Source of the DNA: Haloquadratum walsbyi J07HQW2
GTDB lineage: Archaea > Halobacteriota > Halobacteria > Halobacteriales > Haloferacaceae
NCBI RefSeq assembly: GCF_000415985.1
Contig: NZ_KE356561.1
Coordinates: forward strand, 3,216,524 to 3,280,523
Length of the DNA stretch: 64,000 nucleotides
Direction: 5' to 3'
The notes under the pieces: model-generated
What the model was told of the DNA's origin: nothing
Databases searched by the model: none
Seen by the model: the letters and a program-made list of their open reading frames with translations, nothing else
Shown here: one piece after another, positions 9,792 to 45,148 of the stretch
Position numbering within the stretch: the first letter of the stretch is position 1
How the letters are laid out: each line of letters opens with the position of its first letter
Program-made: the position numbers and the translations under genes

Positions 9792-10415
9792 TCAACTCAA
9801 ATCGGATGGAGTATCAATATCATATAATACACCTTGATCGTTAGTCTCGACAAGTGCCGCATCTTCTGTTTCAAACAGTATTGATCGTCCACCGGTATCT
9901 CCTTGTTGTTCAATAAGCGAATCAAAGTGTTGTCGGTCAAATAACACTGGATTGCCTCGGTGTCCCATGTATGCAGACGCCAGCGCTGATCGCGATCGCT
10001 TCTCATATGTGGCTATCAGTGCTTGCACGCTTGATACTGAGATATTTGGCATATCTCCAAGTGCAATTATAATAGCATCTGCTTTTTTTGTGCGTGCTGT
10101 GTGAGTCCCTACCTCAACTGATGCACTTTGACCGGTCTCATATTTTTCGTTCATGTGAAATTCAACCGGCAGGTCGGATAACGCACTTCGAACCCGATCT
10201 GCGTCGTGTCCAACAATAACAGTTGTTGATAAATTAGCTTCAAGTAATGTCCTCGCGGCTTGTCGAATTATCAAACCACTATCTATCGATTGAATAAGTT
10301 TATTTCTCTCACCGAATCGTGAACTCATACCAGCAGCGAGTAATACGCCTTGCACGTTCGACTCGTGTTTTCTTTCATTCGGTGGCGAGATGACCGGAAG
10401 TTCATTACTGCTCAT
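9792..10415 (-). CDS. MobA/MocA-like nucleotidyltransferase (molybdenum cofactor modification)
   Basis: This 207-residue protein has a GT-A-fold nucleotidyltransferase pattern. The nucleotide-binding loop is LLAAGMSSRFGERNKL (about residues 25-40), followed by VIVGHDADRV, the metal-binding IIALGDMPNIS and HRGNPVLFDRQHF. These features match the MocA/MobA-like group, which transfers CMP or GMP from CTP or GTP to molybdopterin. MocA-type cytidylyltransferase is the closer match, but substrate cannot be read from sequence. No molybdoenzyme gene is in the window. A perfect inverted repeat lies about 50 bp upstream of the start. Confidence 0.8.
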   Translation of the reverse strand: MSSNELPVISPPNERKHESNVQGVLLAAGMSSRFGERNKLIQSIDSGLIIRQAARTLLEANLSTTVIVGHDADRVRSALSDLPVEFHMNEKYETGQSASVEVGTHTARTKKADAIIIALGDMPNISVSSVQALIATYEKRSRSALASAYMGHRGNPVLFDRQHFDSLIEQQGDTGGRSILFETEDAALVETNDQGVLYDIDTPSDLS

Positions 10416-10464
10416 ATTGTTTGATAGCGCATACTATGCGATCTTAATACAAAAAATGGCTACA

Positions 10465-10482
10465 GGTGGATATATTTCCACC
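10465..10482. promoter_or_regulatory. Perfect inverted repeat upstream of the MobA/MocA-like gene
   Basis: GGTGGA-TATATT-TCCACC: two 6-bp arms match exactly around a TATA-like centre. It starts 50 bp before the ATG at 10415 (minus strand), a plausible place for a promoter or operator. A partial further copy of the arm (TCCACC) follows at 10488-10493. Function is inferred from position only. Confidence 0.45.
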
Positions 10483-11263
10483 GACAGTCCACCTATTAGC
10501 ACGTATTAAGCAAATATGATAATATATAATATTCGTGCTGGTTTCGATATAGATCTTAGGAATGACTGATGTATCTTCACGCGTATTAAATTAAGTTCTA
10601 TTCCTGGTTAAAAAACCGCAGGAATTCATATAATGGATATATCTAGTACTAACCTGCTGGTATATAGATTAATACGACATACGGAAACTCAATTATGAAC
10701 ATGCTCAGATTAGTCTGATGCGATCACGGATCTCACATCTGGGATTTAATATGTATATGATACTCATAAGAAGACGATGATTGGATTATACTGTCATTAT
10801 TGTGCGAGGGATTAATATCTAAAACATCGCTCACATATCAGGACACTGGTACTTGAGGACACGTTTGATTTGTAATCTTATATTTCAAAATGTCTAATTA
10901 CAATATTGTTACCACGGGGTAATCCGTTAATCAGATCATCACATGCTGATGGTGCTGTTTTATTTATATAATCACAAATAAGCGAAAAAGATGTATTTAC
11001 ACCTTTTAACTGCTAATTAAAACAAATACGTGTCATGCGATCTGAATATTTGTGATTTGTGAAGAAAAATCGCACACTCAATATAGTTATACCTAAATTC
11101 TTGAATAAATATGTCCAGATAATACTTCGGTAGTGATAACCATATATTAATTATCATCAATAATAATAATATTGACAATTAAACTGCGAATCCAATCCAA
11201 TTTAATATAATTAAATCTGAATGGCTTAGTATGGTCAATGATAAATAATTCTACTTGATTCAT
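10483..11263. other. Very AT-rich gap without supported gene
   Basis: The stretch is strongly AT-rich (runs such as TTAATTATCATCAATAATAA) with no coding frame. It separates the MobA/MocA-like gene from the HalX regulator and may be a remnant of an acquired or decayed region. Confidence 0.5.
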
Positions 11264-11321
11264 TAATTTCGTTGATGAAATCTTTCGGTTACATATAAGT
11301 AACAAATTATTTATATTTACA
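11264..11321 (+). repeat. 58-bp promoter-like repeat, copy 1
   Basis: Starts TAATTTCGTTGATGAAATC and matches the copy at 13850-13907 at 54 of 58 positions. All four differences are transitions. Its core is an inverted repeat, GTTAC-ATATAA-GTAAC, followed by the TATA-like TTTATATTTA. It ends 166 bp before the HalX regulator start at 11488. Confidence 0.65.
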
Positions 11322-11487
11322 CGAAGTAGTAATCTATCTATTCACGCTTTCAAACATCATATATAATGAAATCTATCATAGTGATTTTACGGTAGAACCA
11401 AGAGGCGTTCAATCTACAGTATTAATTACCTCTGCAGATAATAGAAGCTGAATAATTCTATATATTTGACATTGAATCCAGACTGCA

Positions 11488-12054
11488 ATGACTAGAGTGT
11501 CTGTAGAGAAGGAACAGCACGTCTTAATTGCCGAACATAACTCAGAACTGGCAGATCTATTCGCAACGTGGCTTTCACCGACATATCATGTAGACACTGC
11601 CTGTGAGTTTGAAGAAGCAACACAGAAAGTAAATAGTTCAATAGATGTTGTGCTTCTCGACAGACAGATATCAAGATACTCAGAAGCCAAAATGCTTCAA
11701 AAAATCCGGTATGATCAGTATCGAATCCAGTCGGCGGTGATAACCGCCATTGAGCCGGATTTCAATATCGCTGAGACAGGGTTTGATGACTATATTGTCA
11801 AGCCGATATCATGTAGAACTTTAATTGAATTTACTTCAGCACTCATTACTCGTGGAGAGTACACTAAATTAACTAATAATTTGTATCAACTGTCAAAGAA
11901 AAAGGCATTACTTGAGGAGCAGAATAGTCAACGAGAACTACGAAATAGCAACGAGTATGAACAGATCGTCAATCGGTTAAAATCAATACAAGAACATGCC
12001 GATATGACAGTCGAAGAGATAAATCATAAAAAGGCATTTAGTGAACTATCATGA
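11488..12054 (+). CDS. HalX-domain response regulator
   Basis: This 188-residue protein has a receiver domain (about 10-112). The phospho-acceptor is Asp58 in SIDVVLLDRQ and the conserved Lys105 lies in YIVKPIS. The acidic pocket near residues 16-17 is Glu-His rather than the usual acidic pair, so phosphorylation may be altered. Residues about 113-180 form the helical HalX domain (LTNNLYQLSKKKALLEEQNS), found at the C-terminus of haloarchaeal receivers. No DNA-binding domain or histidine kinase is adjacent. The target is unknown. A duplicated promoter-like element lies upstream. Confidence 0.88.
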   Translation: MTRVSVEKEQHVLIAEHNSELADLFATWLSPTYHVDTACEFEEATQKVNSSIDVVLLDRQISRYSEAKMLQKIRYDQYRIQSAVITAIEPDFNIAETGFDDYIVKPISCRTLIEFTSALITRGEYTKLTNNLYQLSKKKALLEEQNSQRELRNSNEYEQIVNRLKSIQEHADMTVEEINHKKAFSELS

Positions 12055-12077
12055 TCATGACATGACATTTTCAATAC

Positions 12078-12458
12078 TTATAGATTAATATTATCAAGCG
12101 GTCCGTCCGTCGCCACACTTGTTGTTATCTGATATTGATTGTTAATGTCTGATGTATTCGTATTAAATACAAACTGATAGCTATTCGTTTCAGAGCCAAG
12201 CACTGTGATTTGTCGACGTCGGGTGTAGGTGTCTCCAGCGATTACATTGCATTGAATGGTTAAAGTTCCAGACTGTGAACTGTTGGATGGATTCATAACA
12301 GCAACCAAAACTACCACAGTCTGCCCATCACGAACTTCCGATTCTGTTCCTTCTATACTTAATCCACTAGAAAGACACCCTGAGAGGGGAATTAAAATAG
12401 CGCTTACTCCACCAATCAAAATATGATGTATGTATTGACGTCGTTCATGTGCCGGCAT
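12078..12458 (-). CDS. Small lipoprotein, probably beta-sandwich
   Basis: The 126-residue product has a signal MPAHERRQYIHHILIGGV followed by a lipobox (IPLSGC, Cys near residue 28). The mature part (TVVVLVAVMNPSNSSQSGTL, YQFVFNTNTSDINNQYQITT) looks like a small extracellular beta-sandwich of the FxLYD/CARDB sort. The ERR at the N-terminus may act as a twin-arginine signal. It converges with the HalX gene, 23 bp apart. Function unknown. Confidence 0.7.
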   Translation of the reverse strand: MPAHERRQYIHHILIGGVSAILIPLSGCLSSGLSIEGTESEVRDGQTVVVLVAVMNPSNSSQSGTLTIQCNVIAGDTYTRRRQITVLGSETNSYQFVFNTNTSDINNQYQITTSVATDGPLDNINL

Positions 12459-12770
12459 TTAGATATTGTGTCTCGTACATGTTATTCAACTCTTCTAATA
12501 TTATCGAATGATATGCATGAAGCGTTCTGAATATATCATAGAAAGAATAGATAACTGACGATTAGATGATAGAAAATATATCAAATTTGATTGTTAGATT
12601 TTAATATCATATAATAAACATTTTTAAGAACGAACCACCACAGCGGTGAACGAGTGCGTTGAACTGATTTAGTTAATCAAATATTCAGGACTTTCGAAAT
12701 AATATTAGCCGTTGAATATATACTGTAATATGAATTAGTTATCTCAGTAAACACATAATTATTAAATCTA
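12459..12770. other. AT-rich promoter region between divergent genes
   Basis: The segment separates the lipoprotein (minus) from the HxlR-receiver-HalX gene (plus). It is AT-rich and must hold both promoters, but no single element stands out. No coding frame was seen. Confidence 0.4.
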
Positions 12771-13610
12771 ATGTCAAATAAAAATACGACCGAATTAATC
12801 AATGATCTGATATCTGCGACGGATGTATTCTCAAAGAAATGGAATGCTCCGGTATTGTATGCAGTCAGTGTGCATTCTGAAGCATCTTATACCGATATTA
12901 GTTCCGTAATACCGGATATAACCAGTAAGATGCTCTCAGGTAGTCTTACTGATCTTCAAGAACGCGATCTTATCAGATATGATGAACAGACACAACAAAG
13001 CGTATATAAACTCACTGCTGAAGGACAAAAGTTTGTTCAGATTCTTGAATTGTTAGTTGAGTGGAACATTCAATACGATAGTGATGAGACTTCAGCATTA
13101 ATAATTGAAGATGAGTCGATGATTGCAGAACTATACATGAACTATCTTTCAGAGGATTATGACCCACATTATTATGAATCTGCTAAAGAGGCACTCTCAT
13201 CTACAATAGATGAAGATATAATTACGATCCTTGACCGACGACTTCCGAACATTTCTGGTGATGAGGTTGCAGCGAGATTAAAAACAAAAGTCGATACCTG
13301 TCTTATTTTAGCAGTCAGTGGAGTTGAACCCGGCGAGGGTATCACTGAGTTACCAATTGATGATTACTTGCAAAAGCCAGTCAAAAAAGATGAATTACTC
13401 TCGCGTCTCAGTAATCTTGAACTTCGCTTAGGATTACCACCAGAAGAACAACAATACCTCGCAGTTCGATCAAAACAGCGAGCGCTTCGGGACGCATATG
13501 GTCGAAGTGCAAATTCGATGTCCGCGTATACGGCACTATCAAAAGAGGCAGATAGTATAGATGTCAGCAGTGATCGAAAAGATTCACTTAATGAGCTTAT
13601 TGAGCGGTAG
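12771..13610 (+). CDS. HxlR winged-helix / receiver / HalX fusion regulator
   Basis: This 279-residue protein starts with an HxlR-type winged helix (about 15-102: KKWNAPVLYAVSVHSEASYT, MLSGSLTDLQERDLI). A complete receiver follows (about 107-215) with acidic pocket Glu113-Asp114, phospho-acceptor Asp155 in ITILDRRLPN and Lys202 in LQKPVKK. A helical HalX domain (about 216-275, PPEEQQYLAVRSKQRALRDA) ends the protein. HxlR proteins usually bind DNA as dimers and sense small signals. Here the fused receiver suggests phosphorylation-controlled DNA binding. No kinase is adjacent. Confidence 0.88.
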   Translation: MSNKNTTELINDLISATDVFSKKWNAPVLYAVSVHSEASYTDISSVIPDITSKMLSGSLTDLQERDLIRYDEQTQQSVYKLTAEGQKFVQILELLVEWNIQYDSDETSALIIEDESMIAELYMNYLSEDYDPHYYESAKEALSSTIDEDIITILDRRLPNISGDEVAARLKTKVDTCLILAVSGVEPGEGITELPIDDYLQKPVKKDELLSRLSNLELRLGLPPEEQQYLAVRSKQRALRDAYGRSANSMSAYTALSKEADSIDVSSDRKDSLNELIER

Positions 13611-13849
13611 ACGTCACCATTGAGTCATATACACCACTTTCAGCAGACAGCAGTATACATGAATAGTTCAGTTTGATCTTACTACGGATTCTACAAATAT
13701 AAATGTCAAGAGTTTTATGATACATACAGCTATCTGTACTGAAATCTCCAGTCTATCTGACAGTCACTGAAACTTCCTTACGAACAGAGTTATGAGTTCT
13801 ACAGTCTCTGGTTATGAAGTTATCTTTGAGTGGTGTACGTTGATTGCCC

Positions 13850-13907
13850 TAATTTCGTTAATGAAATCTTTCGGTTACGTATAAGTAACAAATTGTTTAT
13901 ATTTATA
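13850..13907 (+). repeat. 58-bp promoter-like repeat, copy 2
   Basis: Second copy of the element at 11264, starting TAATTTCGTTAATGAAATC. The inverted repeat GTTAC-GTATAA-GTAAC and the TTTATATTTA box are kept. About 60 bp downstream in both copies there is a further similar stretch (ATGAAATCTATCA against ATGAAGTCTATCA, 11366 and 13970), so the duplication may be longer than 58 bp. It precedes the secreted-protein operon at 14198. Confidence 0.65.
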
Positions 13908-14197
13908 TAAAATACAACTTGAAATAATAGTAGTGCTATCAAACTCATTTACATTCCAAATGTATACATGATGAAGTCTATCAGCATGGGCTTATTCTGG
14001 AGCCAGAATGAGTTTGATGTCGATCCCGAGTCATCACCTGCTGTAATTATAGAGATAATCATTCTTTTGCGTACAGCTAAGAATATACAAACAGATATAC
14101 GATCTATAAATAGCATAGCAATATCAATAGCCATCGTATTATTTTCATCTACATTCTCAATTAATTCTAACAGTATAGTGTATAGAGTGTGCGCCGA
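13908..14197. other. AT-rich leader region with a doubtful short ORF
   Basis: A plus-strand ORF from 13968 to 14201 (77 codons, starting MMKSISMGLFWSQNEF) begins just after the duplicated element and has a hydrophobic middle (PAVIIEIIILL). The minus strand also holds an 87-codon ORF. Neither has clear coding bias. The plus ORF overlaps the next gene by four bases and could be a small translated leader. Confidence 0.3.
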
Positions 14198-43083: not shown

Positions 43084-43224
43084 TTAGTTAATCTTAATTG
43101 ATAGATTGTTGTTCTGTAAGCGGTAGTGGGGTGGTTCAAGAGTGGTCATGATGGCGTATATTTCAACGCCGTTATGTTGCACATTCGCGAGTAAGTCCGC
43201 GAAGTCAGGGTCCACGTCTCGATG
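43084..43224 (-). pseudogene. sfsA: sfsA 3' fragment
   Basis: After the insertion-sequence end the minus strand reads HRDVDPDFADLLANVQHNGV and EIYAIMTTLEPPHYRLQ, ending at TAA 43084-43086. This matches the C-terminal end of SfsA (NRDxDPxFAxxL...GVEVYA). It is the downstream part of the gene whose 5' part lies at 44812-45148. About 80 central residues of the family are missing. Confidence 0.7.
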
Positions 43225-43277
43225 TGACATCCTCCCCGTCGTAAACGACGGGGCTTCCCACACGGTGGGAATGCCAG
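43225..43277 (-). ncRNA. Likely 3' part of the TnpB guide RNA (omega-RNA) and right end
   Basis: Just after tnpB the minus strand has TGGGAAGCCCCGTCGTTTAC then GACGGGGAGGATGTCA. CCCCGTCG and CGACGGGG pair exactly around TTTA. In TnpB systems the guide scaffold overlaps the 3' end of tnpB and runs through the right end into flanking DNA, which acts as guide. In haloarchaea such transcripts are known as sense overlapping transcripts. Position and fold support this; transcription is inferred. Confidence 0.55.
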
Positions 43278-44552
43278 TCAGTCATCGCTGGCAGTGGGTT
43301 CCGACTCTTGAAACGTTGTGAGTTTCATCTGCGAGGGTGTCTCGCTCTGCTCACACTGAGTCGTGGCGGTGTCACAACCGCTCCCGTCCTGTGGCGAGTC
43401 ATCGCCTACCTGTTTCACTGGTAAGCTCTCTCCCCACGGGTCTACGCGCCGTGCGATGTTCGCACTCGCGTTAATATCAGCTTGAAACGTCGATACGTGG
43501 CACTCAGGGTTCTTGCACTTGAACTCGGCTTGCCGGGGTCTATACCCGATGTGTCTGCACGAGTGACACGTCTTTGAGGTGTACTGTGGGTGGACGTATC
43601 GAACCGGAATACCGGCGTCCTTCGCCTTGTCTTCGATACGTCCCTGCAATCGAGCGAATGCCCACGAGTGCAGGCGTCGGTTCATATACTTCCCGTAGTC
43701 CAGCGACTCGCGGATGTACGCCAAGTCCTCCATCACGATAACGGGGTTCTCGAACTGACGAGCGTACTCCACGGACTCACGAGATGCCTTCTCGATGATG
43801 TCCGTGAGTCGATTCTGGTAGTACGAGAATCGCTCCTCGATACGCCACTCGGAGGCGTCTCGCTCTTGGAGTCGCTTGAGTGTCGTGAACATCTCCTTGC
43901 GGATTCGTTTGGCCTCCTTCCCGTTGATGAGAAGTGGTTTCGTGGGAGTGTCGTGTTGGAGGGCACAGCCCGTGACCAACATCGACTCGCCAATATCGAA
44001 TCCAACCCGAGTCTGGTTCTCGGGAAGTTCGGAGGTGTCCTCGATTTCGTATTCAACAGTGACGTGGAGCGTCCACGTATTCCGGTGTTTCTGCAATCGA
44101 AGTTCGCCCACCTTGGTACTCGACTCGTCATCGAGAAGGTCGCCCCACAGTTCTTCTTGCTCGGGGTTCAGTCGAAGTGGAATCCAGAAGTTGGTTCCGC
44201 GACCGGGTTGCGGAACGTTCCAACAGATTTCGTACTCACGCGAGGTGTCACGGTCGAACTTTCCGGCTCGGTTCACGAAGCGGAGCGGGTGGTCGTCGTC
44301 CAATTCGTTTGCGTTGTACGTGTTGTGGAGTTTCGGGACGTAGGATTTGAGGGCGTCTTTCGCTTGGTACGGCAGGTCGTACGGCGTCACCACGTTGTTC
44401 GTGGCACTCATCGTCGTACAGTCTTGCTCGAAGGCGTGGTTGAGTGCGTCTCGGTATTCGGACAGCGTTTGCTGGAGGCGTTGCTCTTTGCACCGAGTGG
44501 GTGGTGCGAGCGTGGCTTCCAGCGTCTTATTCGTCGTCTGAGTCGTTGACAT
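43278..44552 (-). CDS. tnpB: TnpB RNA-guided nuclease, intact
   Basis: The 424-residue protein has a complete RuvC-like site: Asp186 in VGFDIGES, Glu275 in VIVMEDLAYI and Asp359 in FQADINASANIA. The zinc ribbon is complete (Cys329-Cys332 in CHSC and Cys346-Cys351 in CKNPEC). WIPLRLNPEQEELWGD lies in the N-terminal part. TnpB cuts DNA using a guide RNA from the element's right end and helps keep the element in place. The C-terminal tail past about 370 is disordered and rich in Gln/Ser/Thr. The start overlaps the upstream 53-codon gene. Confidence 0.93.
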   Translation of the reverse strand: MSTTQTTNKTLEATLAPPTRCKEQRLQQTLSEYRDALNHAFEQDCTTMSATNNVVTPYDLPYQAKDALKSYVPKLHNTYNANELDDDHPLRFVNRAGKFDRDTSREYEICWNVPQPGRGTNFWIPLRLNPEQEELWGDLLDDESSTKVGELRLQKHRNTWTLHVTVEYEIEDTSELPENQTRVGFDIGESMLVTGCALQHDTPTKPLLINGKEAKRIRKEMFTTLKRLQERDASEWRIEERFSYYQNRLTDIIEKASRESVEYARQFENPVIVMEDLAYIRESLDYGKYMNRRLHSWAFARLQGRIEDKAKDAGIPVRYVHPQYTSKTCHSCRHIGYRPRQAEFKCKNPECHVSTFQADINASANIARRVDPWGESLPVKQVGDDSPQDGSGCDTATTQCEQSETPSQMKLTTFQESEPTASDD

Positions 44553-44688
44553 CGTAGCCTTCGGATTCGAGTCCTTTGCGGAGGAGTTCGGGGTACGCCC
44601 GTGAGTGGCGTATCCCGTGGTCGCGGGCGTACTCCTTCACGGCTTCGTGAAGTGGCCCGCCACGCTCCATATCGAAATCGGCTCTCAT
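44527..44688 (-). CDS. 53-residue ribbon-helix-helix-like protein overlapping tnpB
   Basis: A short frame from ATG 44688 encodes MRADFDMERGGPLHEAVKEY, then ARDHGIRHSRAYPELLRKGL, ESEGYDVNDSDDE and TAA at 44527. It overlaps the tnpB start by 26 bases in another frame. The pattern of a strand followed by two helices (AVKEYARDHG, SRAYPELLRKGLE) suggests a ribbon-helix-helix or small helical DNA-binding protein. Such an ORF is often seen just before haloarchaeal tnpB, from memory. It may repress tnpB or act with it; that is inference. Confidence 0.65.
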   Translation of the reverse strand: MRADFDMERGGPLHEAVKEYARDHGIRHSRAYPELLRKGLESEGYDVNDSDDE

Positions 44689-44811
44689 CCATCTAAGCGT
44701 AACTTAAAGCTAACGGTCGGCATTCGGGTTGGCTGTCAGAGCGTGGTTAGTTCAGCCGTTGTCGGATTCCCTCCCGGCCTGAAGGCCGGGATTCCCTCCT
44801 TGAAAAAGATG

Positions 44812-45148
44812 GCTCGCGTTTTTGAACTGTATATCCGGTAAGCGCGGGAATCGCATCATTAGCAAGCGCGCTCTCAACGAGATCATTCGCCAACGCAGTT
44901 CGAACGCTTACGCAGATATCATCGATAAGGACTGCAATGGCATCATAATCAGTTGATCGATCTGCATCATCGACAGGTGAACATAGGATCTCATGTCCCG
45001 GCTCTATAATTCCCTCAAGAGCACCAGGATCTCCTAAAAACACGCGTTCAGGCGTATTATCAAACCGCACGTGAACAACAAAACGGTTCGGACGGTCAAC
45101 AATAGTGCCCGTTATCAGCGTTGCCTCAATCGTATGCAGTCGCGTCAT
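44812..45148 (-). pseudogene. sfsA: sfsA 5' fragment
   Basis: From ATG 45148 the frame reads MTRLHTIEATLITGTIVDRP, NRFVVHVRFDNTPERVFLGD, PGALEGIIEPGHEILCSPVD and ALTGYTVQKREPSF, matching the OB-fold N-terminus of SfsA (sugar fermentation stimulation protein A, a nucleic-acid-associated protein). It then meets the insertion sequence near 44812. The reading frame continues into the element as a meaningless tail to 44747. The 3' part lies across the element at 43084-43224. Confidence 0.75.

What the first reader, a model, noticed from the sequence alone, without database searches (positions are those of the whole stretch)
43084..45148. sfsA split by an intact TnpB element and missing about 80 residues
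The N-terminal (44812-45148) and C-terminal (43084-43224) parts of SfsA flank the element, but the centre of the family is lost. IS200/IS605 insertion alone deletes nothing, so a deletion or recombination also occurred.
Basis: partly seen in the sequence, partly recalled or inferred. Interest (0 to 1): 0.65.

Follow-up and report, generated by a model that had tools for sequence, protein, structure and literature searches.

The report
Broken sfsA gene with precise deletion
In this salt-loving archaeon a small mobile element sits inside the sfsA gene, and the 78 codons missing beside it end exactly at a second landing site for the same element, so the loss was probably caused by the element itself, although the gene is simply dead.

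Summary
On the minus strand, sfsA codons 1-113 plus one base (44809-45148) and its last 140 nt (43084-43223) flank an intact 1585-bp TnpB-only IS200/IS605 (IS1341-type) element at 43224-44808. No intact sfsA exists elsewhere in the 3.59-Mb genome. A syntenic intact orthologue in a congener (G012) shows that exactly 234 nt (78 codons, in frame) are gone, including the D...EVK nuclease core of SfsA. The genus is Haloquadratum by inference.

The element sits 3' of a short target, CCAT in its own subfamily (13 of 14 copies). The left flank in sfsA is CCAT. All three congeneric orthologues also have CCAT immediately before the base that abuts the right end (about 0.5% by chance). So the deletion runs from one target site to the next, with both element ends perfect. 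I favour two insertions of the same element at the two CCAT sites, followed by recombination between them. Transposase-driven adjacent deletion and CCAT-repeat-mediated deletion are the rivals. It is a pseudogene of an ordinary kind, with an instructive scar.

The parts
44809..45148 (-). sfsA 5' remnant (nt 1-340 of the gene, OB-fold domain), still open
   Evidence: Pfam SfsA_N E 3.2e-15; 71% aa identity to the intact orthologue L001; end fixed
44809..44812 (-). Target site A, CCAT, immediately 5' of the element's left end
   Evidence: CCAT in 13 of 14 subfamily copies
43224..44808 (-). Complete TnpB-only IS200/IS605 (IS1341-type) element, LE CTTTTTCAAGG... to RE ...GGGGAGGATGTCAC
   Evidence: ends fixed from other copies and empty sites
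43278..44552 (-). tnpB, 424 aa, RuvC and zinc-finger residues intact
   Evidence: Pfam PF07282 E 1.8e-16; Cas12f/TnpB structures
44527..44688 (-). 53-aa ORF overlapping the tnpB start, conserved with the element
   Evidence: 87-96% identical in eight related elements
43212..43329 (-). omegaRNA 3' end with the start of its guide
   Evidence: Rfam HgcC RF00062, 31.9 bits, E 9.5e-5, below the gathering score of 50; that HgcC-type RNAs are TnpB guides is from my own knowledge
43204..43223 (-). Predicted TnpB guide region, i.e. sfsA sequence just 3' of the right end (ATCGAGACGTGGACCCTGAC)
   Evidence: position relative to the RE; guide length assumed from known TnpB systems
43084..43223 (-). sfsA 3' remnant (last 140 nt with stop); its first base equals nt 575 of the orthologue, just after target site B (CCAT) in three orthologues

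Best explanation
This is a dead sfsA gene in which both edges of the loss are insertion sites of one element subfamily. Shown: the element's left end sits 3' of a CCAT target (site A, after nt 340 of sfsA); its right end is perfect and joins sfsA at nt 575; 234 nt between are missing; three congeneric orthologues have CCAT just before nt 575 (site B). Inferred: two copies of the element came to occupy sites A and B in the same orientation, either as two insertions on one chromosome or as one copy at A and one at B on sister chromosomes of a polyploid cell. Homologous recombination between the two copies then removed the 234 nt plus one element length, leaving one complete element with the left flank of A and the right flank of B. 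The SfsA nuclease core (D...EVK) went with the lost segment. The TnpA that moves TnpB-only elements is supplied in trans, probably by an intact copy elsewhere in the genome.
For: Element ends are exact: a paralogous empty site in the same genome is 497/500 identical and gapless across the junction (CTAT|ATAG), and an orthologous empty site in G010 is gapless at its junction (CAT|GTCGG). RE GGATGTCAC is followed by unrelated flanks in many copies. CCAT precedes the left end in 13 of 14 subfamily copies, two of which share one site. Site B is CCAT in G012, G010 and G001; CCAT frequency is 4/714 in the G012 sfsA and 0.33% in the window, so chance is about 0.3-0.6%. An intact TnpA with HVH and a C-terminal tyrosine lies next to a tnpB and a left end of the same family.
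Against: The genome holds no second close copy: the best other match is 69% identical over most of the length, so two insertions of this element in one gene must be assumed. The window lineage's own site B is lost; CCAT there is inferred from relatives at about 75% identity or less. The remaining product does not distinguish two-copy recombination from the rival one-copy mechanisms. This is a single case; four other insertion sites that could be checked show no large deletion.
Confidence: 0.45

Rival explanations
1. Transposase-driven adjacent deletion: one element at A or B, and TnpA cuts a second CCAT nearby and joins across, releasing the 234-nt segment as a single-stranded circle.
For: Predicts exactly what is seen: perfect ends and both breakpoints 3' of CCAT. 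Needs only one copy, and only one close copy is present. An intact TnpA is present.
Against: I found no report of such a reaction for IS200/IS605 in the papers searched. Other resolvable insertions show no such deletion.
Confidence: 0.22
2. Repeat-mediated deletion: a single insertion at site B, then loss of 234 nt between the short direct repeats CCAT(C) at A and at the B-left-end junction.
For: Repeat-mediated deletions, some with 4- and 5-bp repeats, are documented for Haloquadratum (PMC3119063). The repeat CCATC is present at A in G012 and is formed by CCAT plus the first base of the element.
Against: It would be a coincidence that, of all short repeats available, the one at the element's exact boundary was used.
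Confidence: 0.2
3. Deletion first: the gene lost 234 nt between the two CCAT tetranucleotides, in frame, and the element later inserted into the remaining CCAT.
For: The deletion is in frame (78 codons) and CCAT is the target.
Against: Requires the element to hit the exact deletion joint by chance among the many CCAT sites in the genome.
Confidence: 0.06
4. Assembly collapse of two identical elements flanking the 234-nt segment; the real locus still holds the segment.
For: Would leave the same joined sequence; the missing segment is found nowhere in the assembly.
Against: The genome is a single 3.59-Mb contig, which makes a collapse less likely; it would still require two insertions at A and B.
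Confidence: 0.05

Closest known systems
IS1341-type (TnpB-only) elements and PATEs of Haloquadratum (ISHwa17-29, HqIRS series; PMC3119063)
   Same: TnpB without TnpA, subterminal palindromes, short conserved target oligonucleotide outside the element, no target duplication
   Different: Most known Haloquadratum copies are broken, while this one is intact; its flanks come from two target sites
Deletion-coupled insertions of Haloquadratum (PMC3119063)
   Same: New DNA stands exactly where host DNA was lost
   Different: Those showed no targeting sequence and no known mechanism; here both edges carry the element's target
Repeat-mediated deletions of Haloquadratum (PMC3119063)
   Same: Loss between two short direct repeats, here CCAT
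   Different: One repeat coincides with the element's target and boundary
SfsA family (PF17746 + PF03749), PDB 4da2, 4dap
   Same: Remnants align at both ends, and the intact orthologue over nearly its whole length
   Different: PD-(D/E)XK core missing; pseudogene

Membership tests
IS200/IS605 family, IS1341 group | tnpB with RuvC and zinc finger, no tnpA in the element | tested here: met
IS200/IS605 family, IS1341 group | Insertion 3' of a fixed short target without duplication; imperfect subterminal palindromes at both ends | tested here: met
   Empty sites gapless at the junction; end sequences
IS200/IS605 family, IS1341 group | Mobilisation by TnpA acting on these ends | not testable with these tools
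   An intact TnpA beside a left end of the same family exists in the genome; activity not shown
TnpB RNA-guided nuclease | omegaRNA overlapping the right end, with its guide in the flank | tested here: inconclusive
   HgcC match below gathering score
SfsA | N-terminal OB domain and C-terminal nuclease-like domain with D...EVK | tested here: not met
   OB domain present, core with TDF...VEVK deleted; hence pseudogene
Repeat-mediated deletion (Haloquadratum) | Short direct repeat at both edges, one copy left | tested here: met
   CCAT at A and B in relatives, one CCAT left; the repeat is also the element's target, so the mechanism is not decided
Deletion-coupled insertion | Insertion and loss at the same position versus a relative | tested here: met
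   1585 bp in, 234 nt out, against G012

The most novel reading that the evidence does not exclude
A single IS200/IS605-type element can delete host DNA between its insertion site and a second copy of its target on the same strand by a TnpA reaction, which would supply a mechanism for part of the unexplained deletion-coupled insertions in Haloquadratum.
Probability: 0.2. Interest if true: 0.6.

Novelty: new member of a known kind. Interest (0 to 1): 0.33.

Why it matters
IS200/IS605 elements are described as inserting and leaving without loss of host DNA. Here a host gene lost 234 nt between two target sites of the element that sits in it. If such target-to-target scars recur, they would explain part of the deletion-coupled insertions reported for Haloquadratum without a mechanism, and they are easy to search for. 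As for the gene, sfsA is dispensable in this genus: most congeners lack it and a second one (G010) has wrecked it independently.

Tried and rejected
Intact duplicate of sfsA elsewhere: none. TnpB cutting as the cause: rejected as the main cause, because TnpB is expected to cut well inside the flank (own knowledge), while both breakpoints here lie exactly at the target. TTTTTCAA as target: my first guess, because the orthologue has TTTCAA near site B; empty sites showed that the target is the YYAT (CCAT) before CT and that TTCAA belongs to the element. Recurrence test on other copies in the genome: four resolvable sites show no large deletion, one is too rearranged to read (L151), and the remaining flanks tested gave no usable orthologue. 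Literature searches for IS605 adjacent deletions gave nothing on point.

Full report
Check. On the minus strand the window holds the first 340 nt of sfsA (44809-45148), then a 1585-bp element (43224-44808), then the last 140 nt of sfsA (43084-43223). Both pieces are open and in frame with the family: Pfam SfsA_N E 3.2e-15 for the first, positions 106-136 of Pfam SfsA for the second. The genome (3.59 Mb, one contig) has no other sfsA by profile or DNA search.

Reference. Of 17 genomes of the genus, two (G012 and G001) carry an intact sfsA, G010 has a broken one, and most have none. One G001 locus of this element is the same as a locus of Haloquadratum sp. J07HQX50 in the named collection (L086 and L115), so the genus is Haloquadratum by inference. 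In G012 the gene stands in the same neighbourhood: the DNA of the gene upstream of sfsA matches at 81%, and the same small membrane-protein gene lies downstream. Its nt 1-340 and 575-714 align end to end with the window pieces at 73% and 76%, so 234 nt, exactly 78 codons, are missing. The lost peptide in G012, SLPDHGRTDF...AYVEVKSC...RFQP, holds the D...EVK active site predicted for SfsA nucleases (PMC1189080). The intact orthologue aligns with the solved SfsA proteins 4da2 and 4dap over nearly its whole length.

Element. tnpB codes for 424 aa with the three RuvC acidic residues and the zinc finger. No tnpA lies inside. A 53-aa ORF overlaps its start and travels with the element. The protein is 84-94% identical to TnpBs in Haloferax, Halogeometricum, Natronocalculus, Halorussus, Haloarcula and others, so the element moves widely among haloarchaea. 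A sub-threshold Rfam HgcC match (43329-43212) runs across the right end into sfsA, as expected for an omegaRNA whose guide is the flank.

Ends. Other copies in the genome share the right end GGATGTCAC followed by unrelated flanks, and left ends preceded by YYAT. A paralogous locus in the same genome without the element matches the joined flanks of one copy at 497 of 500 bases without a gap, with the joint CTAT|ATAG; a second site is gapless at the joint in G010. So the element runs from CT... to ...GTCAC, and the YAT-ending tetranucleotide before it is the target. In the subfamily of the window element the target is CCAT in 13 of 14 copies, two of which share one site.

The scar. The left flank in sfsA ends in CCAT (site A). 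The right end joins sfsA at the base equal to nt 575 of the orthologue, and G012, G010 and G001 all read CCAT just before that base (site B). CCAT occurs at 0.56% of positions in the G012 gene and 0.33% of the window, so a chance match at this one position is unlikely. The loss thus runs from one target to the next on the same strand, and both element ends are perfect.

Mechanism. Three mechanisms give the observed product: recombination between two copies at A and B, a transposase reaction between one copy and a second target, or a repeat-mediated deletion between CCAT at A and CCAT at B after insertion at B. The first needs only known reactions, but needs a second copy that is no longer present. 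The second needs one copy and an intact TnpA, which is there, but I found no description of it. The third is documented in Haloquadratum even for 4-5 bp repeats (PMC3119063) but must have chosen the element boundary by coincidence. I put them at 0.45, 0.22 and 0.20.

Context. Dyall-Smith et al. 2011 (PMC3119063) described deletion-coupled insertions in Haloquadratum with no targeting sequence and no known mechanism, and described IS605-type elements there as mostly broken. The present locus is a small case in which the targeting sequence is visible. In G010 sfsA was destroyed independently: most of the N-terminal region is gone and a short IS605-like remnant sits further on.

Noticed in passing
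L006/L004 (G010), sfsA region: sfsA of congener G010 is independently wrecked: about 100 N-terminal codons are deleted and a short non-coding element of about 270 bp with IS605-type ends sits in the remaining part.
   Followed up: partly
G000:C1:643287-644571 and 1945448-1945947 (L031, L040): A segment present twice in the genome, 99% identical over 500 bp, once with and once without a TnpB-type element: a natural empty-site pair.
   Followed up: yes
G000:C1:2775343-2777523 (L024/L025): A segment of about 1.2 kb containing a 458-bp non-coding IS605-type element is tandemly duplicated.
   Followed up: no
G000:C1:761795-762154 (L099): Intact TnpA (HVH, C-terminal Tyr) beside a tnpB and a left end of the same family: the likely mobiliser of the TnpB-only and non-coding copies.
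   Followed up: partly
window 44527-44688: 53-aa ORF overlapping the tnpB start, 87-96% conserved across genera with the element; no confident Pfam family; function unknown.
   Followed up: partly
window 10000-14000: G+C drops to about 36% against about 46% for the window.
   Followed up: no
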